Of a stretch of 64,000 nt of DNA, positions 44,095-64,000 are shown in pieces (positions within the stretch are counted from its first letter, which is position 1; each line of letters starts with the position of its first letter). The stretch is from Catenovulum agarivorans DS-2. Lineage in GTDB: Bacteria; Pseudomonadota; Gammaproteobacteria; Enterobacterales; Alteromonadaceae. The stretch is from the NCBI RefSeq assembly GCF_000568405.1, contig NZ_ARZY01000022.1, positions 1 through 64,000 on the forward strand, in the 5' to 3' direction. The notes under the pieces were generated by a model. It was given only the letters and a program-made list of their open reading frames with translations. It was not told the origin of the DNA and ran no database searches. The translations under genes and the position numbers were made by a program.

Positions 44095-46221
44095 TTATTT
44101 ATAGATAAAGCTTGATGCATCACCTCCGTTTGGTAGTTGCATATCGCCTCTATACAAAATATTCGCCCTTTTGGTTTCACTTGCGCCCAAAGCTAAGCCG
44201 TCTTGCACTATGTTGGCTTGGCTATAGTCAACACCAAAGAACCCTTCTACTGCTGATTCATCCCCTATTTCTGTAGCAGAGAGTTGCGACAAAGCCAATA
44301 CGGGTGCAACTGGGAATATGTAGTACCAACGTTCACCAGATTTATCTGTCGTTTTTGCAATATCGTTACGCGATATCTGTGTAATGCTCTTATTGGTTTG
44401 CGCCGCTAAATACTCACGGTTGGACAAACTCAATAAATAAGTTGAGAGGTTGCCCACTTCTGCAACCGGTTGGTCGAATATGGTTTGGCGTAAAATTATA
44501 TCGCCTTTAATCGACACATTATTGATGCGCCCTCGGGTTAAATCTCGACATTCGCGCCCTTTACAGTCGTATGACCCTTTACCGATTAACAGTGCACTGC
44601 CACTATCAATTGCTTCAACATTTTCGACACTAATATCTTTCATTATTTTACTGTGGGTTTTCAGCCAAACTGCAGTAAAGCCTTTTGTCAGTTTAATGTT
44701 AGATATTTTAATTTTATTGGCTGATGAATAATAAGGTCCAGAACGGTTTACTTTATCATTGGTTGTACCATTGCCAGCTTCTATGCGCACACCAACACCG
44801 TGAACGGCTTCAATATTGTCTATTTCCACCCAGTCGCCACCATATACCTGAACCGCACCATAACCAGTATGCACATTAATGGCTTTGATGTTTTTAATAC
44901 TGCCTTTGATTGGTGTGCGACCATAGGTTGGATTGCGCTGTATAGCAAACATATCTGGGACTATATTGCCATCGTCGTCAATAAAATCACCATTGCTGTT
45001 GGTTGCTAGTGGAATATTTATTGGATTCATTGGGTTGTTTGCGCCGCCTTGATTGTCGTATCTATCTTGTAAAAACACAGGCTTTGAACCAAAACGCCAG
45101 GCGAATGCACCGTCTTTATTATCGTGGTCGGCTGCCAATTGCACTGATACGTTTTCTGTATAGTTGTCTTGAATCACCACGTTAGAAACAGCAAAGTTGC
45201 GCGCATAACCAATTGCAAAAGAAACAGCTCGGGTTAGGTTGACTAAACCACCACCGTTGCCACCAGTCATATTGCCATATTCAATTGGGTTATTGGTGGT
45301 TGCATCAATGGTGAAACTGCGGCTTGGGTCGGTTGAGGTTATTTCAACATTTTCCACGCGCTCGTCCAACAAATTGCCTGGGCCATTACTGCGGCCAATA
45401 CTAAACAATATGTTTCTATTCACATTGCTGGTTTCTTTGTTGCCGCGCATTTCCAAAACAACTTCTGGCTCTATTTCAATGCGCACATTGGCGGGTACTG
45501 GAATATGTGCAAGGCTAAATCTGTTATTCGCTGTGCCTGTAGTTGCATCTGTGTTTTGTGCAACTCGCAGTATTACTACACCACCATTTTCTTCTTTACG
45601 TGCGCGGTTTAATGCACCGCTCACTCTTGCACTGTCGTCGGTATCGGCAGTAAAAGTGTGCTCTGCATATACAATTTCTGGTTCGTCATCAAATACCTTA
45701 TTTTCAAAAAAACCAACTTCTTCACCTTGATAGGCTGAAAAATCTGTATCCATTGGCCGCTCATCAGCGGGCGGTGTTGGTGTTGGTGTTGGTGTTGGTG
45801 TTGGTGTTGGTGTTGGTGTTGGTGTTGGTGTTGGTGTTGGTGTTGGTGTTGGTGTTGGTGTTGGTGTTGGTGTTGGTGTTGGTGTTGGTGTTGGTGTTGG
45901 TGTTGGTGTTGGTGTTGGTGTTGGTGTTGGTGTTGGTGTTGGTGTTGGTGTTGGTGTTGGTGTTGGTGTTGGTGTTGGTGTTGGTGTTGGTGTTGGTGTT
46001 GGTGTTGGTGTTGGTGTTGGTGTTGGTGTTGGTGTTGGTGTTGGTGTTGGTGTTGGTGTTGGTGTTGGTGTTGGTGTTGGTGTTGGTGTTGGTGTTGGTG
46101 TTGGTGTTGGTGTTGGTGTTTCAACACCAGTATTGTCGTCGGCATTTGTTGTGTCAACATCGCTACCACATGCCGTTAATAACGTAGCTGCAACTAAATA
46201 AGCTAAATATTTTTTAGACAT
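44095..46221 (-). CDS. divergent GH82-like beta-helix lipoprotein with (Thr-Pro) linker
   Basis: 708 residues. Lipobox LTAC (Cys18), then a linker of 58 Thr-Pro dipeptides (positions 45773-46120), then a right-handed parallel beta-helix. Its coil [20 protein letters not shown] followed by [10 protein letters not shown] resembles the GH82 iota-carrageenase coil GYGLVQMYGADN and LRMETDN in the next gene; at the catalytic pair the acid Glu is kept (Glu481) but the base Asp is Gly483. So it may be a GH82 relative with altered chemistry, an inactive binder, or a lyase of another family. Second gene after the GH82 gene, same strand. Confidence 0.7.
45773..46120. repeat. 58 perfect tandem GGTGTT hexamers
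   Basis: 348 bp of exact hexanucleotide repeat (58 x 6) on the plus strand, ACACCA on the coding strand, encoding (Thr-Pro)n in the GH82-like lipoprotein. No interruptions. All reading frames are open across it. Copy number should vary by slippage without frameshift, changing linker length by two residues per unit. Confidence 0.97.
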
Positions 46222-46296: not shown

Positions 46297-49200
46297 TTAC
46301 CAGCGACTATCTGGGCAAGCTTGCATACCGTAGTAATTACACACTCGAGATGTGGCGGTATCACCATTAACGAAATCTAGTTTAGGTGTTGCAAAATCAA
46401 CCATATTTAAATTGTAAATATTGATATTGAAGTTGTAATCAACACCCAATTTATTTTCATCAAGCACACCACCAATTGACGGACCAATATAAATTTGCCC
46501 TTGTCGTGACCATTGCTCGTTTGTTGGTAAACAAACATTGGCACAGGTTTGGTTAGTGGTTGTGAAATAATCTAACTGATCTTGTTTTAAGTGCGCATCA
46601 ATACCATTAATGGCTGTTACGTTGTACACGTGCGATTCAGCAAACCAACCTGGTTTTAAACCGTATCTTCGGTGCGCTTCATCTAAACAGGCTTTAGTTG
46701 GGGTAATACGTGATGCCCATTGGTTGTTGCCACGCGCGTATGGTTGCTGAGCACAACCTTCACCTATTTCTGCATTAACAGCATCTCTCCAACTTTGGCG
46801 TGTATGCGTTTCACCAGCAGGACTAAACAATTCGACAAAGCCGCCGTCTACACGTACAGCAAAACCACAACCATTAGACACAACACCATTAACCTGAACC
46901 GAACCATTTTGTTGGAAATGTGGCCCAAACATCACAGGAGATAAACAATCTGTACCGCGAATATCTTCTGCAAATATGTTGCGAATCCCCCCTTTGCCAT
47001 AGTCTTTCATGGTCAGGTTATCGGTTTCCATACGTAAGGTGATACCACCTTCACTATGTAAGTTGCGGAATAAGATATTGTCTGCACCGTACATTTGTAC
47101 TAAACCATAACCAAACAATGAATTGCTCTGGTCAATGTTTTCGATAATGCCGTTCACAGGCCAGAAAATATCATTATCGCGTTCAACAATCCCGACTAGG
47201 AAAGATGCAAAAATGGTTTTGTTATCTTCAATTTTGAAGTTAGAGAACTTAAAGTTTTCAATATCACCCATTTTGAATACCGCAGTTCTTTCGTTTGGTG
47301 CATCGCGTAAATCAACTGTAAAACCATTGCCTAAACCAACTAAGCTGAAGTTTTCTGCTTTGCTTTGGTTGCCCATTTCAAACATCCACACGTTATAGCC
47401 ACCACCTGGTGTAATGTGGAATACTGCACCTTCGTCAACTTCTAAATGTACGTTTGAACGCATATGCAAACTTCTAAAGTAGTAATGGCCAGCAGGCATA
47501 TACAGTTTACCACCGTTTTGCTCGGCACTGATTTGGTCTAATGCTAACTGCATAGACGCAGTATCATCTTCAGTATCCGTGTTATTAACCGCAAAGTCAG
47601 TTACGGCATTTTTCTCAACACCATATTGAGTTGGAGGAATATAAAAATCAGTATCCACTACAGGTAAAGGTGTTGGACGAGGGTTACTTGTGTAAGTGCC
47701 GCTACCATCATGTAAACCATAGTCGTGCTCTGGCTCTTCGTTAACAATAGCGCCGCTGCGTGCAAGTGCGTTATCACCAGTTAATACATAATCGTCAATA
47801 ATAACTTTGTCGCCTACTTCCAAACCACCAAAGAAGAACGAAGGTAATACATCTACTATGTCGCTGCCATTGGTTAAAATCCAACTATCAGGAATCGAGA
47901 ATGATTGAGCGTTAGTATTAGCGTCAACAAAAGTCACCTCGACCCAATTTTCAAAATCAGCCGAATTAATACTTGCTGTATAGTCTGCGGTTACCGCTTT
48001 AGCAGCTTCAACTTTACCAAATTTACCGCCATCCAATGTGACGTTCCAAGGCAATAAATGATGTTTAATCGTTACCGGCTCGGTACCAAGATTACCCTCA
48101 CCCTTTTCAACTTTTATTAGCAAGGTCACAGATTGAATTTCAGTTTCAATTTTACCGCCGCCAAATGCTTGGCTCCATGGGTTGGCATTGCCCCATTTGT
48201 GCCATAACAATGACTGGTTATCTATGTTGGTTGCAGCATTGCTGTCTGTATAAGAAATTGCATTGCTGTTTTGATACCCACTGCCTTCTTCAAGACCAAT
48301 GGTGCCGAAACCTGCTAAAACAAAACCCCAACCGCCATTTTGTGCAACGGTTGCATCATTAAAATCATATTCGATGGTGAAGTCAGTTGGAATAGGCAGT
48401 GGTTCGCCTACTTCGGTTAACACTTCATAATCGTCAAGGTAGATTTTGTCACCAACTTCAGTGTTGCCGAATTTAAATTCAGGGTAGATATTTAAATCGC
48501 CATTGTTATAACCAAACCAAGTTGAAGGAATAATAAACTGATTTGACTCTTGGTCTTGTAATTCTAGATTAATCTCAACCCAACCGGTTGAACCCGCTGG
48601 CACTACACCTACATATTTAGGCGCTGCAGCAACGGCCGCAGGATAGTTATTGCGCTTATTACCACTGACTAAACCATAAGGTAATAAGTAGTGAATAACT
48701 TCAATGTCTTTTTCTGTTGTGAGCTCTGTTTTAACCCAAACTTTGACACTTTTAATAATATGTCCATGATTAGCAAACCTCGCGGTGAATTCGCTGTCAC
48801 GCCATTTTTGTAAATAAATACCGTTTTGTTCTGGATTAACATTAACGCTGGTATCTGTATATGAAAGTGCTGCACCACTGCGGCCTAACCCATCTTCAAA
48901 TGCCATAGCTCCACGATCAATTACGCTATAAATCCAACCTTGACTACCTTGGTTTTCTGCCACTTCATTGCTGTCAAAACTGTAGTTAAACACCAATTGG
49001 TCGCCTAGATTATATTCAGGTTCTTCAACCCCGCTGTTGTTGCCACTTCCGCCAGTGTCGTCGCCAGTATTTCCATCAGAGCCACCGCCTGTACCAGTGT
49101 CATCTTCTACTGGCTCACAGCACGCATTTTCTAGTGGCGCGCCAATTTTATAGTTATCAACATATACTTTGTCGCCTATCTCTAAACCATCAAATAAAAA

Positions 49201-50151
49201 TTGTGGATATACCTGAATGTCAGATTCACCATCGTAGTGAACCCAAGTTTCAGGAATGGTGAATTGTTTTAAGCCTGTTTTAGTATCAACAAACTCAACT
49301 TGTACCCAAGTATTATTGGCTGATGCTGGAATAACCATTTCATATTGCGGGCCTAAGTCGATACCCGCATTTATAGTTGGGCCTTTTTTGTCGTCAATTA
49401 CAGGAAAAGGCACTAGGTTGTGGCGCACAGTTACATTGCCTGCCACCGCTTTTTCAACTTTAACCCACAGTGAAACAGACTCTAAGGTTTCGCCATATGC
49501 TGTCGCTAGTGCATCAGTCCATGGGTTAATATTTTTTTTATTGGTACGGTTATTAAATCGAATACCATTTTGTGTAATGTTGGTATTAGTGCTGGTATCC
49601 GTGTATGAAAATGCAGCACTACCATCAGCGCCAGCAGTGTCTTCAAATGCCATCACACCACGATTTCTGGTGGGGTAAACCCAACCTTCCCAGTTGTTAT
49701 TTTCTGTTTGAATATCTTCGATAGAATTAAAATCGTAACCAAAGCTAAACACTTCGGGTTCAGCTAATACGTATTGTTGTAATTCTGCGTTATAAGAAAA
49801 TGCGGCACGTTTCATTGCGAAGTTGATTTGCAATGAATCGGTTATCTTGTTTAGGTTGAAATAAGGTTGATTACTGGCGGTTAAGCCGTCTGCGTCTAAT
49901 ACATTGTGGCTTGAATCAGTTACAACTATACGCAACTGCTCTGACAATTCGGTATTTTCAGGTACTGATACAGTATTAAAAGTATAATAACCAACCCGGC
50001 GTTTAGTATATCGAGCACTTTGTTCAATAGTTGCTGAGTCTACCGTTACCCAAGAACCATCCTCTTGAGCATAAGCATAATTTACCGAACCGCAAGCAAG
50101 TGTTAGCGCAGCAAATTTTGCTAATTTAGGGATTAAATTGGATATACCCAT
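46297..50151 (-). CDS. cgiA: iota-carrageenase (GH82) with three repeated N-terminal modules
   Basis: 1284 residues. A Sec signal ends near AYA. Three copies of a module of about 200 residues follow (about 150-345, 390-585, 595-795), each with an F/Y-D-x-N/S start, LxSVxLxVKVEK-type strand, HxLLPxxx, Ile-Pro-x-x-W and a terminal GDKxYxDxY. The C-terminal 450 residues match iota-carrageenases of Alteromonas fortis type: SNVHLEVDEGAVFHIT, NLHSEGG, LRMETDN with catalytic Glu1042 and Asp1044, ELFSPAGETHTRQSW, and the ending CNYYGMQACPDSRW. GH82 cleaves beta-1,4 bonds of iota-carrageenan. Known enzymes are about 490 residues without these modules. Gly/Ser/Asp linker at about 350-385. Confidence 0.88.
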   Translation of the reverse strand: MGISNLIPKLAKFAALTLACGSVNYAYAQEDGSWVTVDSATIEQSARYTKRRVGYYTFNTVSVPENTELSEQLRIVVTDSSHNVLDADGLTASNQPYFNLNKITDSLQINFAMKRAAFSYNAELQQYVLAEPEVFSFGYDFNSIEDIQTENNNWEGWVYPTRNRGVMAFEDTAGADGSAAFSYTDTSTNTNITQNGIRFNNRTNKKNINPWTDALATAYGETLESVSLWVKVEKAVAGNVTVRHNLVPFPVIDDKKGPTINAGIDLGPQYEMVIPASANNTWVQVEFVDTKTGLKQFTIPETWVHYDGESDIQVYPQFLFDGLEIGDKVYVDNYKIGAPLENACCEPVEDDTGTGGGSDGNTGDDTGGSGNNSGVEEPEYNLGDQLVFNYSFDSNEVAENQGSQGWIYSVIDRGAMAFEDGLGRSGAALSYTDTSVNVNPEQNGIYLQKWRDSEFTARFANHGHIIKSVKVWVKTELTTEKDIEVIHYLLPYGLVSGNKRNNYPAAVAAAPKYVGVVPAGSTGWVEINLELQDQESNQFIIPSTWFGYNNGDLNIYPEFKFGNTEVGDKIYLDDYEVLTEVGEPLPIPTDFTIEYDFNDATVAQNGGWGFVLAGFGTIGLEEGSGYQNSNAISYTDSNAATNIDNQSLLWHKWGNANPWSQAFGGGKIETEIQSVTLLIKVEKGEGNLGTEPVTIKHHLLPWNVTLDGGKFGKVEAAKAVTADYTASINSADFENWVEVTFVDANTNAQSFSIPDSWILTNGSDIVDVLPSFFFGGLEVGDKVIIDDYVLTGDNALARSGAIVNEEPEHDYGLHDGSGTYTSNPRPTPLPVVDTDFYIPPTQYGVEKNAVTDFAVNNTDTEDDTASMQLALDQISAEQNGGKLYMPAGHYYFRSLHMRSNVHLEVDEGAVFHITPGGGYNVWMFEMGNQSKAENFSLVGLGNGFTVDLRDAPNERTAVFKMGDIENFKFSNFKIEDNKTIFASFLVGIVERDNDIFWPVNGIIENIDQSNSLFGYGLVQMYGADNILFRNLHSEGGITLRMETDNLTMKDYGKGGIRNIFAEDIRGTDCLSPVMFGPHFQQNGSVQVNGVVSNGCGFAVRVDGGFVELFSPAGETHTRQSWRDAVNAEIGEGCAQQPYARGNNQWASRITPTKACLDEAHRRYGLKPGWFAESHVYNVTAINGIDAHLKQDQLDYFTTTNQTCANVCLPTNEQWSRQGQIYIGPSIGGVLDENKLGVDYNFNINIYNLNMVDFATPKLDFVNGDTATSRVCNYYGMQACPDSRW

Positions 50152-50252: not shown

Positions 50253-50885
50253 TTAGGCAGCGCTCAATTTTTTACGTACGCTTAAACCTGCAAGTCCCAA
50301 TGCAAAAATGGCAAAAGTTGTTGGTTCGGGTACAGGTACACTGCTAATAGAAATGTTAGAAACGGTAAGACTGTCGCCTAAGCTAAAATCACCATCTAGC
50401 ACTCCAAAATAAAGTGCAATTTCAGAACCTGCGTAGGCGCTAATATCAGTACTTAACCCGTCGATGGTAAAGTCGTGTAATAAGTCAAAGTTTTGATCAA
50501 CCAAAGACACTTGAAAAAGGTCGTCTAGTGGCTCTGTTAGAAAAGTTGAGTATTCCAATGACAATACTGCAGAGTTTGCTGCAACTTCAAATTGCTGGAA
50601 AAGATAAATACCATAGTATTCGTTATCTTGGTCAGCAGATGTTGTTAAAGTAACGCTATTGCCCGCTGTTGCAAAATTAGCTGTATAGTCACCAACATTA
50701 ACGTTATATTCTTCAAAAGTGCTGTCTGTCGCATATTCATAAATGAATACGTCACCTTCCCAGCCATTCAGATCATTACTGAAATCTGCATTGATTAAGC
50801 CAGCAAACGCGGTTGAACTAAGTGCCATACCAGCCATGAACACGACCGATTTAAAGTAGGTTGTAAATTTCTGTTGTAGTTTCAT
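50253..50885 (-). CDS. PEP-CTERM sorted exported protein
   Basis: 210 residues from ATG 50885 (GAGG nine bases upstream). A Sec signal ends at AFA; the mature part begins GLINADFSNDLNGWEGD, a beta-sandwich of the kind found in extracellular carbohydrate-binding proteins. The C-terminus is a canonical PEP-CTERM: VPEPTTFAIFALGLAGLSVRKK, motif, membrane helix, basic tail, to be processed by exosortase. Immediately upstream of the GH82 gene on the same strand, so it may be surface-attached and bind substrate or display it; function not known. Confidence 0.8.
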   Translation of the reverse strand: MKLQQKFTTYFKSVVFMAGMALSSTAFAGLINADFSNDLNGWEGDVFIYEYATDSTFEEYNVNVGDYTANFATAGNSVTLTTSADQDNEYYGIYLFQQFEVAANSAVLSLEYSTFLTEPLDDLFQVSLVDQNFDLLHDFTIDGLSTDISAYAGSEIALYFGVLDGDFSLGDSLTVSNISISSVPVPEPTTFAIFALGLAGLSVRKKLSAA

Positions 50886-51132
50886 CTTGTAGTGCCTCAA
50901 TTATTAGAAACAAAGTTTAAGTTGGTGCGTTTATCCCTAACGAATCCAACTAAAAACATATATAATCTACTATATTGTTTAACTTGTGTAAACATCATAC
51001 GTTTTAATTATTAACGATTATTTTACTTTTAACACTTAAGGTTAATAAATCGAAGCGGCCGCAACAGAAGTTGCATTCTAGTATTGGCTGGGGTTAAATT
51101 CGCGCTTTAGAATACTTGCAGGCATTTAAACC
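50886..51132. other. divergent promoter region
   Basis: About 245 bases between the PEP-CTERM gene (minus) and the TrmH-like gene (plus), AT-rich near 50940-51050. It should hold both promoters; I cannot pick exact elements with confidence. Confidence 0.35.
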
Positions 51133-62334: not shown

Positions 62335-63450
62335 CTAATCCACTTTACGATATGAACGGATCCAATCTACTTCCATATCATTCGGATAACCTTCGCCCGT
62401 CGCTTCGCTGCGAACTGGACAACGATTAAACCCTTCATATTCACCAGTACAGTCATAAGTTACATGTGGCGAACGCAACCCAAGTGATAAGGTAACCCGC
62501 ATTGGTAAATGCCAATACTTGTTTGGTTTTTGAAATACCTGTTTGCCATCTAAAAACCAAGTTATGGTTTCTGGGGTAATCTCTGCAGCGTAAATATGAA
62601 AGTCTTCTCTTGGATCAAAATCAACTAATAGTTTATTTTGTGCCAAATCAGAAAAATCATTGTGTGGTCGAACTTGAATTTGCTCACCATTTTCACCACG
62701 TACCACAGCATGCAAATTCATATCCATTACTTTTTCATCATCCCATTTTGCCGTACCTGTAATACTGCTCCACTCTCGTTGCTGTAGTTCAACTATGTCT
62801 ACTTCAGAATAAAATGGCTGTTCTGCTTCAGTCGGCTTCATGCCTGCCGCATCTCTATCAGCTGCATTGCTATACAACCAAAATGCTGGGCTTGCCCCTG
62901 GAAAAGTTGGATTACCCTTGATACGGGCTTCAAAATAACCATAAGTAATGGTTTCGCGTGCGCGGACTATGCCTGATTTATAAAACATATCGTTTGATAT
63001 TAGTTCGCTCGTACCATTACGCGTGCCCCAACGGGTATCAGTATGAGGCTCATATCGCATGGTTAGATGCAAATGACCTTCCGCGTCTATCGATGTATTA
63101 TCAGGCTCCCATGACCACGGGCCCCAATCATTAATATCGTTGTCCCATTTATTTAAATTAATCGTGGCATCATTAAACTCATCCGATAAATTCTCAACCA
63201 GCTGCCATTGTGATTTATCGACATTCTCTCTTGTCGGGAATAAATCCTCACCCGCTTGTGGAGTATCAATTTCAGGTTCTTGTTCCTGTTCCTGCTCTTG
63301 TTCCTGTTCTTGCTCTTGTTCTTGCTCTTGCTCTTGCTCTTGCTCTTGCTCTTGCTCAGACGATGATAAATTTGGCGAATCTGACGAGCCACCACAGCTG
63401 ATTAATACACTAGCTAAAGCACAAAGGATTAAATTGTATTGAAATTTCAT
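62335..63450 (-). CDS. cgkA: kappa-carrageenase-like GH16 lipoprotein
   Basis: 371 residues from ATG 63450 (AGGAG five bases upstream). Lipobox LISC, then 13 Glu-Gln repeats (63277-63357), then a GH16 jellyroll. FPGASPAFWLYS, YSEVDIVELQQ with nucleophile Glu216, Asp218 and acid/base Glu221, FDPREDFHIYAAEITPETITWFLDG, YWHLPMRVTLSLGLRSPHVTY and EGYPNDMEVDWIRS match Pseudoalteromonas kappa-carrageenase (GH16_17) rather than agarase or laminarinase. Hydrolyses beta-1,4 bonds of kappa-carrageenan or a related galactan, tethered to the outer membrane. A furcellaran-type GH16 is the nearest alternative. Confidence 0.82.
   Translation of the reverse strand: MKFQYNLILCALASVLISCGGSSDSPNLSSSEQEQEQEQEQEQEQEQEQEQEQEQEQEPEIDTPQAGEDLFPTRENVDKSQWQLVENLSDEFNDATINLNKWDNDINDWGPWSWEPDNTSIDAEGHLHLTMRYEPHTDTRWGTRNGTSELISNDMFYKSGIVRARETITYGYFEARIKGNPTFPGASPAFWLYSNAADRDAAGMKPTEAEQPFYSEVDIVELQQREWSSITGTAKWDDEKVMDMNLHAVVRGENGEQIQVRPHNDFSDLAQNKLLVDFDPREDFHIYAAEITPETITWFLDGKQVFQKPNKYWHLPMRVTLSLGLRSPHVTYDCTGEYEGFNRCPVRSEATGEGYPNDMEVDWIRSYRKVD
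63277..63357. repeat. hexanucleotide repeat coding (Glu-Gln)13
   Basis: Thirteen units of YTCYTG on the plus strand plus a final CTC, imperfect at the third base of codons. It makes the acidic linker of the GH16 lipoprotein. Degenerate codons suggest an older repeat than the perfect GGTGTT tract at 45.8-46.1 kb. Confidence 0.9.
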
Positions 63451-63509
63451 TAGCACTCCTATTGGGTGTTAATTATGTTTTAACAAGGGGAAAAAATGGC
63501 ATAAATTGG

Positions 63510-63546: not shown

Positions 63547-64000
63547 TTATTCGGTTACTTCAACAATTGCATAATCGTCTAATAACAATACGTCACCAGG
63601 CTGCAAGCCTTCGATGTCAAAGAATGGGAATACATGGTCGCGAATAGTCCAATTTGCAGGCACTGTCCATGCCGCTTGCAAGTCAGAGAATTTAAACTCT
63701 ACAAGCTGCCAGTCTGTTGTCGCTTTTAACTCAGCTGACACTATACCTTGAGCTTCAAAACGCTTGTCAAAACCTGGGCCTGAAGGGCCATCTTGGTATG
63801 ACCAAGGCAATAATCTATGGGTCAACTTAGCGCCTGAATTAACATCGCCAGTTGCATCAGCTGGCTTCACTTTAGCCCAAACATAAAACTTAAACTTTTT
63901 ACCAATTGCGCTACCAGCGTTTGCAAGTAACTCTGTGTGGTAGTTTCTTAAGTTATTCCAGACTTGGCGAACAATGGTCGTTTTGTTGCTTGGGTCGGCT
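63547..64000 (-). CDS. partial gene carrying the GH82-associated module
   Basis: The last 150 codons of a gene that runs off the right edge; its N-terminus is outside the window. The visible part, from VRQVWNNLRNYHTELL to the end, has VKPADATG, LTHRLLPWSYQD, WQLVEFKFSDL, IPANW-type VPANWTIRD, then LQPGDVLLLDDYAIVEVTE. These line up with the LxHxLLP, IPxxW and GDKxYxDxY marks of the three repeats in the 1284-residue iota-carrageenase. It is therefore likely another large carrageenan-active or -binding protein. Its N-terminal domain cannot be seen. Confidence 0.72.
   Translation of the reverse strand, partial: ADPSNKTTIVRQVWNNLRNYHTELLANAGSAIGKKFKFYVWAKVKPADATGDVNSGAKLTHRLLPWSYQDGPSGPGFDKRFEAQGIVSAELKATTDWQLVEFKFSDLQAAWTVPANWTIRDHVFPFFDIEGLQPGDVLLLDDYAIVEVTE

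What the first reader, a model, noticed from the sequence alone, without database searches (positions are those of the whole stretch)
46297..50151. Iota-carrageenase with a triplicated, unassigned accessory module; a fourth copy ends the window
The catalytic C-terminus is recognisably GH82, but it is joined to three repeats of a beta-rich module that I cannot match to a named carbohydrate-binding family. A fourth copy forms the C-terminus of the gene cut at 64 kb, next to the GH16 gene. Repetition inside a secreted galactanase and recurrence in the same locus suggest a carrageenan-binding module, possibly undescribed. Sequence shows the repeats and the GH82 signatures; binding is inference.
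Basis: partly seen in the sequence, partly recalled or inferred. Interest (0 to 1): 0.85.

Follow-up and report, generated by a model that had tools for sequence, protein, structure and literature searches.

The report
Carrageenase's triple binding-module array, receptor-linked
A seaweed-degrading marine bacterium makes a carrageenan-cutting enzyme that carries three copies of an unnamed sugar-binding-type module, and a divergent copy of the same module sits on a lipoprotein encoded beside an outer-membrane import receptor, so enzyme and importer probably grip the same seaweed sugar.

Summary
ORF 46297-50151(-) is a GH82 iota-carrageenase (E 1.6e-166 to CgiA) preceded by three ~200-residue repeats (32-36% identical); a fourth, divergent copy ends the gene cut at 64 kb. 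No Pfam, NCBIfam or PDB sequence family matches the module; its predicted fold is a beta-sandwich close to CBM4/22/11/30. The array R1-R2-R3 is old: in 13 of 13 GH82 genes compared, from four bacterial families, each position forms its own clade.

The fourth copy is not in an enzyme. The whole gene is a 620-aa lipoprotein with a Big_2 domain, directly after a TonB-dependent receptor (TBDR). I examined 38 such lipoproteins: 38 of 38 follow a TBDR directly, 29 of 38 carry this module. Of 395 sampled genomes, 25 carry the module, among them all 20 with a kappa-carrageenase of 200 bits or more.

Best reading: a carrageenan-binding CBM-like module shared by a secreted carrageenase and a TBDR-partner lipoprotein that works like SusD/SGBP. 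Binding is inferred, not shown; CAZy/dbCAN could not be consulted; the modules are net acidic.

The parts
46297..50151 (-). GH82 iota-carrageenase with three N-terminal modules, 1284 aa
50068..50151 (-). Probable Sec signal peptide (residues 1-28, ...NYAYA/QED), read by eye
   Evidence: sequence inspection; no signal-peptide predictor was run
49765..50067 (-). Small N-terminal domain (residues 29-129), unassigned; recurs in some, not all, of the other GH82 array genes and in one GH82-like gene (L054)
   Evidence: GH82Nterm hits; no Pfam match there
49144..49749 (-). Module R1
   Evidence: R1 clade, 16 rows, support 99/97
48403..48990 (-). Module R2
   Evidence: R2 clade, 13 rows, support 100/99
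47779..48381 (-). Module R3, the one modelled (pLDDT 85, pTM 0.83)
   Evidence: R3 clade, 13 rows, support 100/99
46300..47673 (-). GH82 catalytic domain, aligned over its length with CgiA; motif LRMETDNL kept
   Evidence: METDN at residue 1041
63547..64000 (-). C-terminal part of a 620-aa lipoprotein (whole gene 63547-65409 of the contig) holding module copy R4; a TonB-dependent receptor lies directly upstream at 65442-69056 of the contig, outside the window
62335..63456 (-). GH16 gene nearest to kappa-carrageenase (299 bits, below the NCBIfam cut-off of 350)
44095..46221 (-). GH82-like gene with a lipobox and a ~120-residue TP linker; IEAGN where GH82 has METDN

Best explanation
The repeat is a carbohydrate-binding beta-sandwich module specialised on sulfated red-algal galactan, most likely carrageenan. 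In the secreted GH82 enzyme three diverged copies hold the iota-carrageenase on carrageenan, each probably reading a somewhat different motif. A divergent copy ends a lipoprotein encoded directly behind a TonB-dependent receptor, where it would catch chains or oligosaccharides at the cell surface and hand them to the receptor, as SusD/SGBP proteins do for SusC. Shown: GH82 identity, repeats, receptor pairing, conservation of each array position, co-occurrence with carrageenases; the fold class by prediction only. Inferred: ligand, surface exposure, hand-over.
For: GH82 by strong homology. Predicted beta-sandwich with Foldseek neighbours BT_4411, CBM22/4/11/30/27 and SGBP-B; the lipoprotein-type module model points to CBM16/CBM4 (low confidence). 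Array positions R1/R2/R3 each monophyletic in 13 of 13 genes compared; 64-71% mean identity within a position against 32-38% between positions, on 29 modules of 9 genes. 38 of 38 lipoproteins examined lie directly after a TBDR, ORF-end distances -82 to +102 nt; 19 of the 29 that carry the module have a GH82-type or kappa-carrageenase-like GH16 hit in the fetched stretch, 25 of 29 have one of these or a related sulfatase, GH127, GH16 or dehydratase. Module in 25 of 395 genomes, holding all 20 of 395 with a kappa-carrageenase of 200 bits or more; Fisher p 2.5e-29. In the P. carrageenovora plasmid that bears its carrageenan genes, a lipoprotein with this module (E 6e-32) sits between a TBDR and a GH82-like gene.
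Against: No binding data. Modules are net acidic (-7 to -20), odd for a polyanion unless the site is local and basic. Two module-bearing lipoproteins (L067, L072) lie in 17-kb stretches with no carrageenan-type hit at my thresholds, so the module family need not be carrageenan-only. Two of two Microbulbifer genomes have the array but no match to the lipoprotein profile. The genome's second GH82 lacks the array. Foldseek TM-scores are modest (0.41-0.51, query-normalised, for CBM entries in the top 50), and Eph receptors, Cry toxins and gingipain adhesins are in the same list. In the tree the lipoprotein modules are not one clade: 4 of the 27 rows so labelled (one of them, L062, not a lipoprotein of the family) fall on the array side, and long branches make the deep joins unsure. 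The co-occurrence test ignores shared ancestry, only the best 6 or 8 candidates per genome were scored, and I set the 200-bit line after seeing the gap between 201 and 85 bits.
Confidence: 0.7

Rival explanations
1. The modules bind another cell-wall polymer or the cell's own envelope, so they place the enzyme near its substrate but do not recognise carrageenan.
For: The nearest predicted folds are titled as CBMs for xylan, cellulosomal cellulases, mixed-linkage glucan or mannan. Net acidic modules. Module also in stretches without a carrageenan-type hit (L067, L072).
Against: All 20 genomes with a kappa-carrageenase of 200 bits or more are among the 25 module carriers, and 25 of 29 module lipoproteins have carrageenan-type genes in the fetched stretch.
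Confidence: 0.17
2. The repeats are beta-rich spacers or protein-contact domains (for secretion, stability, or docking enzyme to lipoprotein) without sugar binding.
For: Multiplication in tandem and modest fold scores allow it; no ligand data.
Against: Each position keeps its own invariant aromatic and polar set (R1: 11 rows, R2: 9, R3: 9) over four bacterial families, which I would not expect of spacers. The CBM-like predicted fold and the receptor partner point to sugar.
Confidence: 0.1
3. The module is already a catalogued CBM family in CAZy that Pfam, NCBIfam and the PDB copy lack.
For: CAZy/dbCAN was not searchable here. The only family list I saw is one passage of an appendix table of 2024 that ends at CBM101; the part shown (CBM84 to CBM101) names no carrageenan.
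Against: No credible Pfam model for 30 of 30 modules (best E 0.027), no PDB chain at E up to 10; paper searches listed no title or abstract that describes it (listings of 10, 22 and 76 were capped).
Confidence: 0.15

Closest known systems
GH82 iota-carrageenase (CgiA; PDB 1h80, 3lmw)
   Same: Catalytic domain aligned over the chain, E 1.6e-166, motif LRMETDNL kept.
   Different: The window protein has ~800 extra residues: an N-terminal domain and three modules absent from the PDB chains of 464-473 residues.
CBM families 4, 22, 16, 11, 30 (beta-sandwich CBMs)
   Same: Predicted fold and secreted-enzyme context.
   Different: No sequence match to Pfam or PDB members; 7-16% identity in the 50 listed structural alignments of R3; about 200 aa long.
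SusC/SusD and surface glycan-binding proteins of Bacteroidota (e.g. CgtA/CgtB of Zobellia, PMC5698469, passages seen)
   Same: Lipoprotein encoded beside an outer-membrane TonB-dependent receptor in a carrageenan setting.
   Different: No SusD domain in Pfam scans of the ten lipoproteins given, only Big_2 and weak Ig-like hits; the window's receptor is of the TIGR01782 type; gene order receptor then lipoprotein.
Gammaproteobacterial carrageenan loci (Paraglaciecola hydrolytica PMC5943477, Colwellia echini PMC6952198, P. carrageenovora PMC6262041; passages, and for the last also section 14)
   Same: Same kinds of genes: GH16, GH82, sulfatases, TBDR.
   Different: No passage seen names the lipoprotein beside the TBDR or the module; 'p0027' and 'Ig-like' occur 0 times in the main text of PMC6262041. 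Figures and supplements were not seen.

Membership tests
GH82 iota-carrageenase | Full-length homology to a characterised GH82 | tested here: met
   E 1.6e-166, residues 827-1283 to chain positions 3-462
GH82 iota-carrageenase | Catalytic Glu/Asp pair (E245/D247 of CgiA as I recall it) kept | tested here: met
   LRMETDNL identical in the alignment; the assignment of the two residues is recalled and was not found in the paper looked at
GH82 iota-carrageenase | Activity on iota-carrageenan | not testable with these tools
   needs expression
Beta-sandwich CBM (families 4, 22, 16 and the like) | Sequence match to a named CBM family in Pfam/NCBIfam | tested here: not met
   no CBM model on the whole protein; none for any of 30 modules in Pfam
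Beta-sandwich CBM (families 4, 22, 16 and the like) | Beta-sandwich fold | tested here: met
   pLDDT 85, 64 PDB hits at E up to 1e-3, CBMs prominent; modest TM-scores; a prediction, not a structure
Beta-sandwich CBM (families 4, 22, 16 and the like) | Carbohydrate binding | not testable with these tools
   needs binding assay
Any CAZy CBM family | Match in dbCAN/CAZy | not tested
   library not on hand
SusD / SGBP (Bacteroidota) | Lipoprotein adjacent to an outer-membrane TBDR | tested here: met
   38 of 38 directly after a TBDR; lipobox by pattern in 23 of the 27 checked, and in 2 of the other 4 an L-x-G-C box by eye in the printed start
SusD / SGBP (Bacteroidota) | SusD domain in Pfam | tested here: not met
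   ten lipoproteins scanned (3 and 7), only Big_2 and weak Ig-like or unrelated hits
SusD / SGBP (Bacteroidota) | Receptor of SusC type | tested here: not met
   one receptor: TIGR01782 (TonB-Xanth-Caul) 512 bits against a cut-off of 310; no SusC model among its two hits
SusD / SGBP (Bacteroidota) | Surface exposure and glycan capture | not testable with these tools
   needs proteinase shaving and binding assays

The most novel reading that the evidence does not exclude
Gammaproteobacterial sugar TBDRs have their own, so far unnamed, lipoprotein partner: a constant N-terminal part with Big_2 and an exchangeable C-terminal glycan-binding module that suits the locus, an independent counterpart of SusD/SGBP. 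In carrageenan loci the exchangeable part is drawn from the same module family as the array on the secreted iota-carrageenase, so enzyme and importer read the same polymer.
Probability: 0.5. Interest if true: 0.78.

Novelty: new variant of a known kind. Interest (0 to 1): 0.63.

Why it matters
Passages seen here say that gammaproteobacterial polysaccharide loci lack SusC/SusD pairs or have standalone TBDRs (PMC5943477; PMC10100682; PMC6262041). A receptor-partner lipoprotein with a varying binding module would fill that gap, can be found by profile, and could help to predict which receptor takes which polymer. For enzymology, three separately conserved modules on a GH82 are candidate carrageenan probes and account for array enzymes (1284-1802-residue frames) about three to four times as long as the CgiA chains in the PDB.

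Tried and rejected
Rejected: (1) the fourth copy as part of a second enzyme: the complete gene shows only Big_2 in Pfam and nothing in NCBIfam. (2) A recent tandem duplication: positions are 32-38% identical between and 64-71% within positions, with 13 of 13 genes in the same order. (3) A module spread over the class: 1 of 369 class genomes matched, the own one; but one search shows it in Microbulbifer, Neiella and Thalassotalea too, so that sample misses carriers. (4) A known sequence family: none at E up to 10 in PDB, none credible in Pfam.

Led nowhere or weak: the AlphaFold model of the lipoprotein-type module has mean pLDDT 64 with its first ~40 residues and residues 60-79 under 50, so its Foldseek list is only suggestive. 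The plasmid collection gave one record for the lipoprotein and none for the array. PHROGs and PADLOC were not used. Neighbour scans of divergent pairs gave a GLAA-B-type (GH110-like) gene at L118, tryptophan-halogenase-family genes at L119, L120, L121 and L067, and sulfatases plus a GH2-type gene at L116; the glycans of those loci remain open. Paper search returned nothing.

Limits and dropped rows: one search used one peptide pattern, so its eight loci are no census. L011, L014 and L017 were left out of the tree as the same genomes as L077, L080 and L078; L012's GH82 domain is cut by its contig end but its array is counted. A3 holds 22 and A4 23 of the 27 lipoproteins.
Full report
1. The observation. 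ORF 46297-50151(-) encodes 1284 residues. Residues 827-1283 align with the iota-carrageenase CgiA (PDB 1h80, 3lmw) over the chain at E 1.6e-166, including the stretch LRMETDNL, which holds the catalytic Glu and Asp as I recall them. Before it lie three modules at about residues 135-336, 388-583 and 591-791, 32-36% identical to each other with E from about 1e-39 to 1e-21. A fourth copy at the C-terminus of the gene cut at 64000 is much more distant: 24-29%, E 5e-8 to 1e-4, and E 4.3e-13 by a profile of 30 modules without this copy. A search of the own genome (4,572,425 bases, 143 contigs) with R3 at E up to 10 gave only these four places.

2. What the cut gene is. The contig runs on to 86,225 bases. 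The complete gene (63547-65409 of the contig) is a 620-aa protein with the lipobox LAGC, a Big_2 domain (E 2.4e-5) and the module at its end. It is preceded on the same strand by a 1204-aa TonB-dependent receptor, TIGR01782 at 512 bits over a cut-off of 310. A second, related pair of receptor and lipoprotein lies on contig 27, some 4 kb from a second GH82 gene, which lacks the array.

3. The module has no named family here. Pfam and NCBIfam gave no CBM for the whole protein; their hits lie in the GH82 part. Pfam gave nothing credible for 30 of 30 modules (best E 0.027). A profile of the 30 modules found no PDB chain at E up to 10. AlphaFold2 predicts a beta-rich fold for R3 (pLDDT 85, pTM 0.83). 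Foldseek's best PDB hit is BT_4411, a putative sugar-binding protein (E 2e-6), followed by CBM22, CBM4, CBM11, CBM30 and CBM27 entries among others; SGBP-B of B. thetaiotaomicron is at rank 41. TM-scores go up to about 0.5 and identity is 7-16% in the 50 rows shown; Eph receptors, Cry toxins and gingipain adhesins are in the list too. A model of the lipoprotein-type module (Thalassotalea, L012) is poor (mean pLDDT 64) but repeats the strand and helix order of R3 from about residue 85 on, and its best hits are CBM16 and CBM4 entries.

4. The array is old and each place in it is kept. One scan of genome contigs, with a single peptide pattern, gave eight loci, each with a gene holding three or four modules before GH82, in Paraglaciecola, Thalassotalea, Neiella, Alteromonas, Microbulbifer and Catenovulum (in the Thalassotalea locus GH82 is cut by the contig end). 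With those, 13 distinct array genes were compared (three loci that repeat genomes were left out). In the maximum-likelihood tree of 70 modules, the R1 rows (16), the R2 rows (13) and the R3 rows (13) each form one clade (99/97, 100/99, 100/99), so 13 of 13 genes keep the order R1-R2-R3; three genes have R1 twice. The lipoprotein modules are not one clade: 23 of the 27 rows so labelled lie together and 4 fall on the array side, and the program warns of long branches. On the 29 array modules of alignment A2 (9 genes), mean identity is 64-71% within a position and 32-38% between positions, and each position has its own invariant aromatic and polar residues. I read this as three binding sites with different tasks; that reading is inference.

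5. The lipoprotein family. A profile of the lipoproteins' N-terminal part without the module (A3, 22 rows) was searched in 395 family genomes; it rings in 70, but many of these hits cover only the Big_2 part. I examined 38 lipoproteins: the 35 places with E up to 2.3e-23 (most already found through the module), one in Thalassotalea (L012) and two in Neiella. The one on contig 27 (L006) came in with a stretch fetched around the second GH82; no other was picked for its neighbour. In 38 of 38 a TBDR homologous to the window's lies directly upstream on the same strand, with ORF ends -82 to +102 nt apart. 29 of 38 carry the module by profile A2; six more match only profile A4 (one of them, L006, is part of A4), three of these weakly (3e-5, 5e-5, 0.004); three (L119-L121) match neither, although their C-terminal regions end in a similar DN-x-x-x-E pattern by eye. 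So the N-terminal part stays and the end varies. Ten lipoproteins were scanned in Pfam; Big_2 is the only family above its cut-off in eight of them, in a ninth (L113) HL_N-beta (a beta-sheet domain) passes as well, and one (L117) has no match above a cut-off.

6. Link to carrageenan. In 395 family genomes the module is in 25. NCBIfam kappa-carrageenase NF041449 at 200 bits or more is in 20 of the same 395, and all 20 are among the 25; Fisher's exact p is 2.5e-29. That test ignores shared ancestry, only the best candidates per genome were scored, and the 200-bit line was set after seeing the gap between 201 and 85 bits; at E up to 1e-3 the model rings in 284 of 395 genomes and passes its curated cut-off in 2, so the cut matters. 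The five other carriers (G117, G141, G161, G180, G267) have GH82-type, GH16 or sulfatase hits near their module genes in the stretches fetched. Of the 29 module lipoproteins, 19 have a GH82-type or kappa-carrageenase-like GH16 hit in the fetched stretch and 25 have one of these or a related sulfatase, GH127, GH16 or dehydratase; the four without are L012 (whose array gene is next to it but cut), L079 (a 6-kb contig), L067 and L072. In the class sample 1 of 369 genomes matches, the own one. The P. carrageenovora plasmid NZ_CP027525 holds TBDR, 'Ig-like domain-containing protein' and a 544-aa 'hypothetical protein' in a row; the second is a lipoprotein of this family with the module (E 5.7e-32), the third hits the window's GH82-like gene at 4e-36 and GH82 at 7e-15. 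By gene order these would be PCAR9_p0026, p0027 and p0028 of PMC6262041 (inference), of which p0026 (TBDR) and p0028 (GH82) are named in the section I read and p0027 occurs 0 times in the main text.

7. Mechanism proposed. The secreted enzyme is held on carrageenan by three modules while its GH82 domain cuts; the lipoprotein catches chains at the outer membrane with the same kind of module and passes them to the TBDR; sulfatases, a GH127-family enzyme and a dehydratase of the locus work further in. Steps shown: genes, families, pairing, conservation, co-occurrence. Steps inferred: ligand, exposure, hand-over.

8. Against. No binding data exist. The modules are net acidic. Two module lipoproteins (L067, L072) sit in 17-kb stretches without a carrageenan-type hit, so the family may be wider than carrageenan. 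Two of two Microbulbifer genomes have the array but no such lipoprotein. GH82 activity should not need the array, since the CgiA chains in the PDB lack it (that CgiA is active is recalled). CAZy could not be consulted.

9. Known and new. Passages of PMC5943477, PMC10100682 and PMC6262041 say that gammaproteobacterial loci lack SusC/SusD pairs or have standalone TBDRs. Searches for carrageenan-binding modules and GH82, and 21, 44, 59 and 83 for TBDR partners, listed no paper that by title or start of abstract describes this module or this lipoprotein; several listings were capped (10: 30 of 97; 22: 25 of 63; 21: 20 of 24; 76: 15 of 17) and the library holds open-licence papers only. An appendix table in PMC11122601 (one passage seen) gives porphyran for CBM99, chondroitin sulfate for CBM100 and agarose for CBM101; the part I saw (from CBM84) shows no carrageenan. 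CBM92 and a CBM on a kappa-carrageenase appear in listings only. Passages of PMC6923384, PMC12549532, PMC3669377 and PMC9788395 mention neither the module nor the lipoprotein. I file the module as an unnamed CBM-like family and the lipoprotein as a counterpart, not a member, of SusD/SGBP.

Noticed in passing
window 44095-46221 (-): GH82-like gene with a lipobox (LTAC) and a TP repeat of ~120 residues. Its core matches CgiA at E 3e-9, but METDN is IEAGN, so one of the two catalytic acids as recalled is lost; a homologue lies on contig 27 (L006:5636-7603).
   Followed up: partly
window 62335-63456 (-): GH16 gene with a lipobox (LISC) and an EQEQ repeat linker; 299 bits to kappa-carrageenase, under the NCBIfam cut-off of 350, so its substrate may be a hybrid such as furcellaran.
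   Followed up: no
window 50253-50900 (-): PEP-CTERM protein next to the GH82 gene; no link to the locus was tested.
   Followed up: no
L070:5909-9574: 1222-residue frame with one module at residues 274-434 and a GH82-like C-terminal part: the module is also fused to the GH82-like relative.
   Followed up: partly
L062:7878-9461: 528-residue frame with the module at residues 197-360 and a phosphatidylethanolamine-binding-protein-like domain (PF01161) at its end; no TBDR beside it in the stretch.
   Followed up: no
L119, L120, L121, L067: Tryptophan-halogenase-family genes near TBDR-lipoprotein pairs; in L119-L121 the lipoprotein end does not match the module. The role of these flavoproteins beside such receptors is unclear to me.
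   Followed up: no
L005:10237-15183 (contig positions 73636-78582): Two adjacent homologous GH42-like genes of 811 aa each, a tandem duplication in the carrageenan locus; 'GH42-like' is my own label, not from a family scan of these two genes.
   Followed up: no
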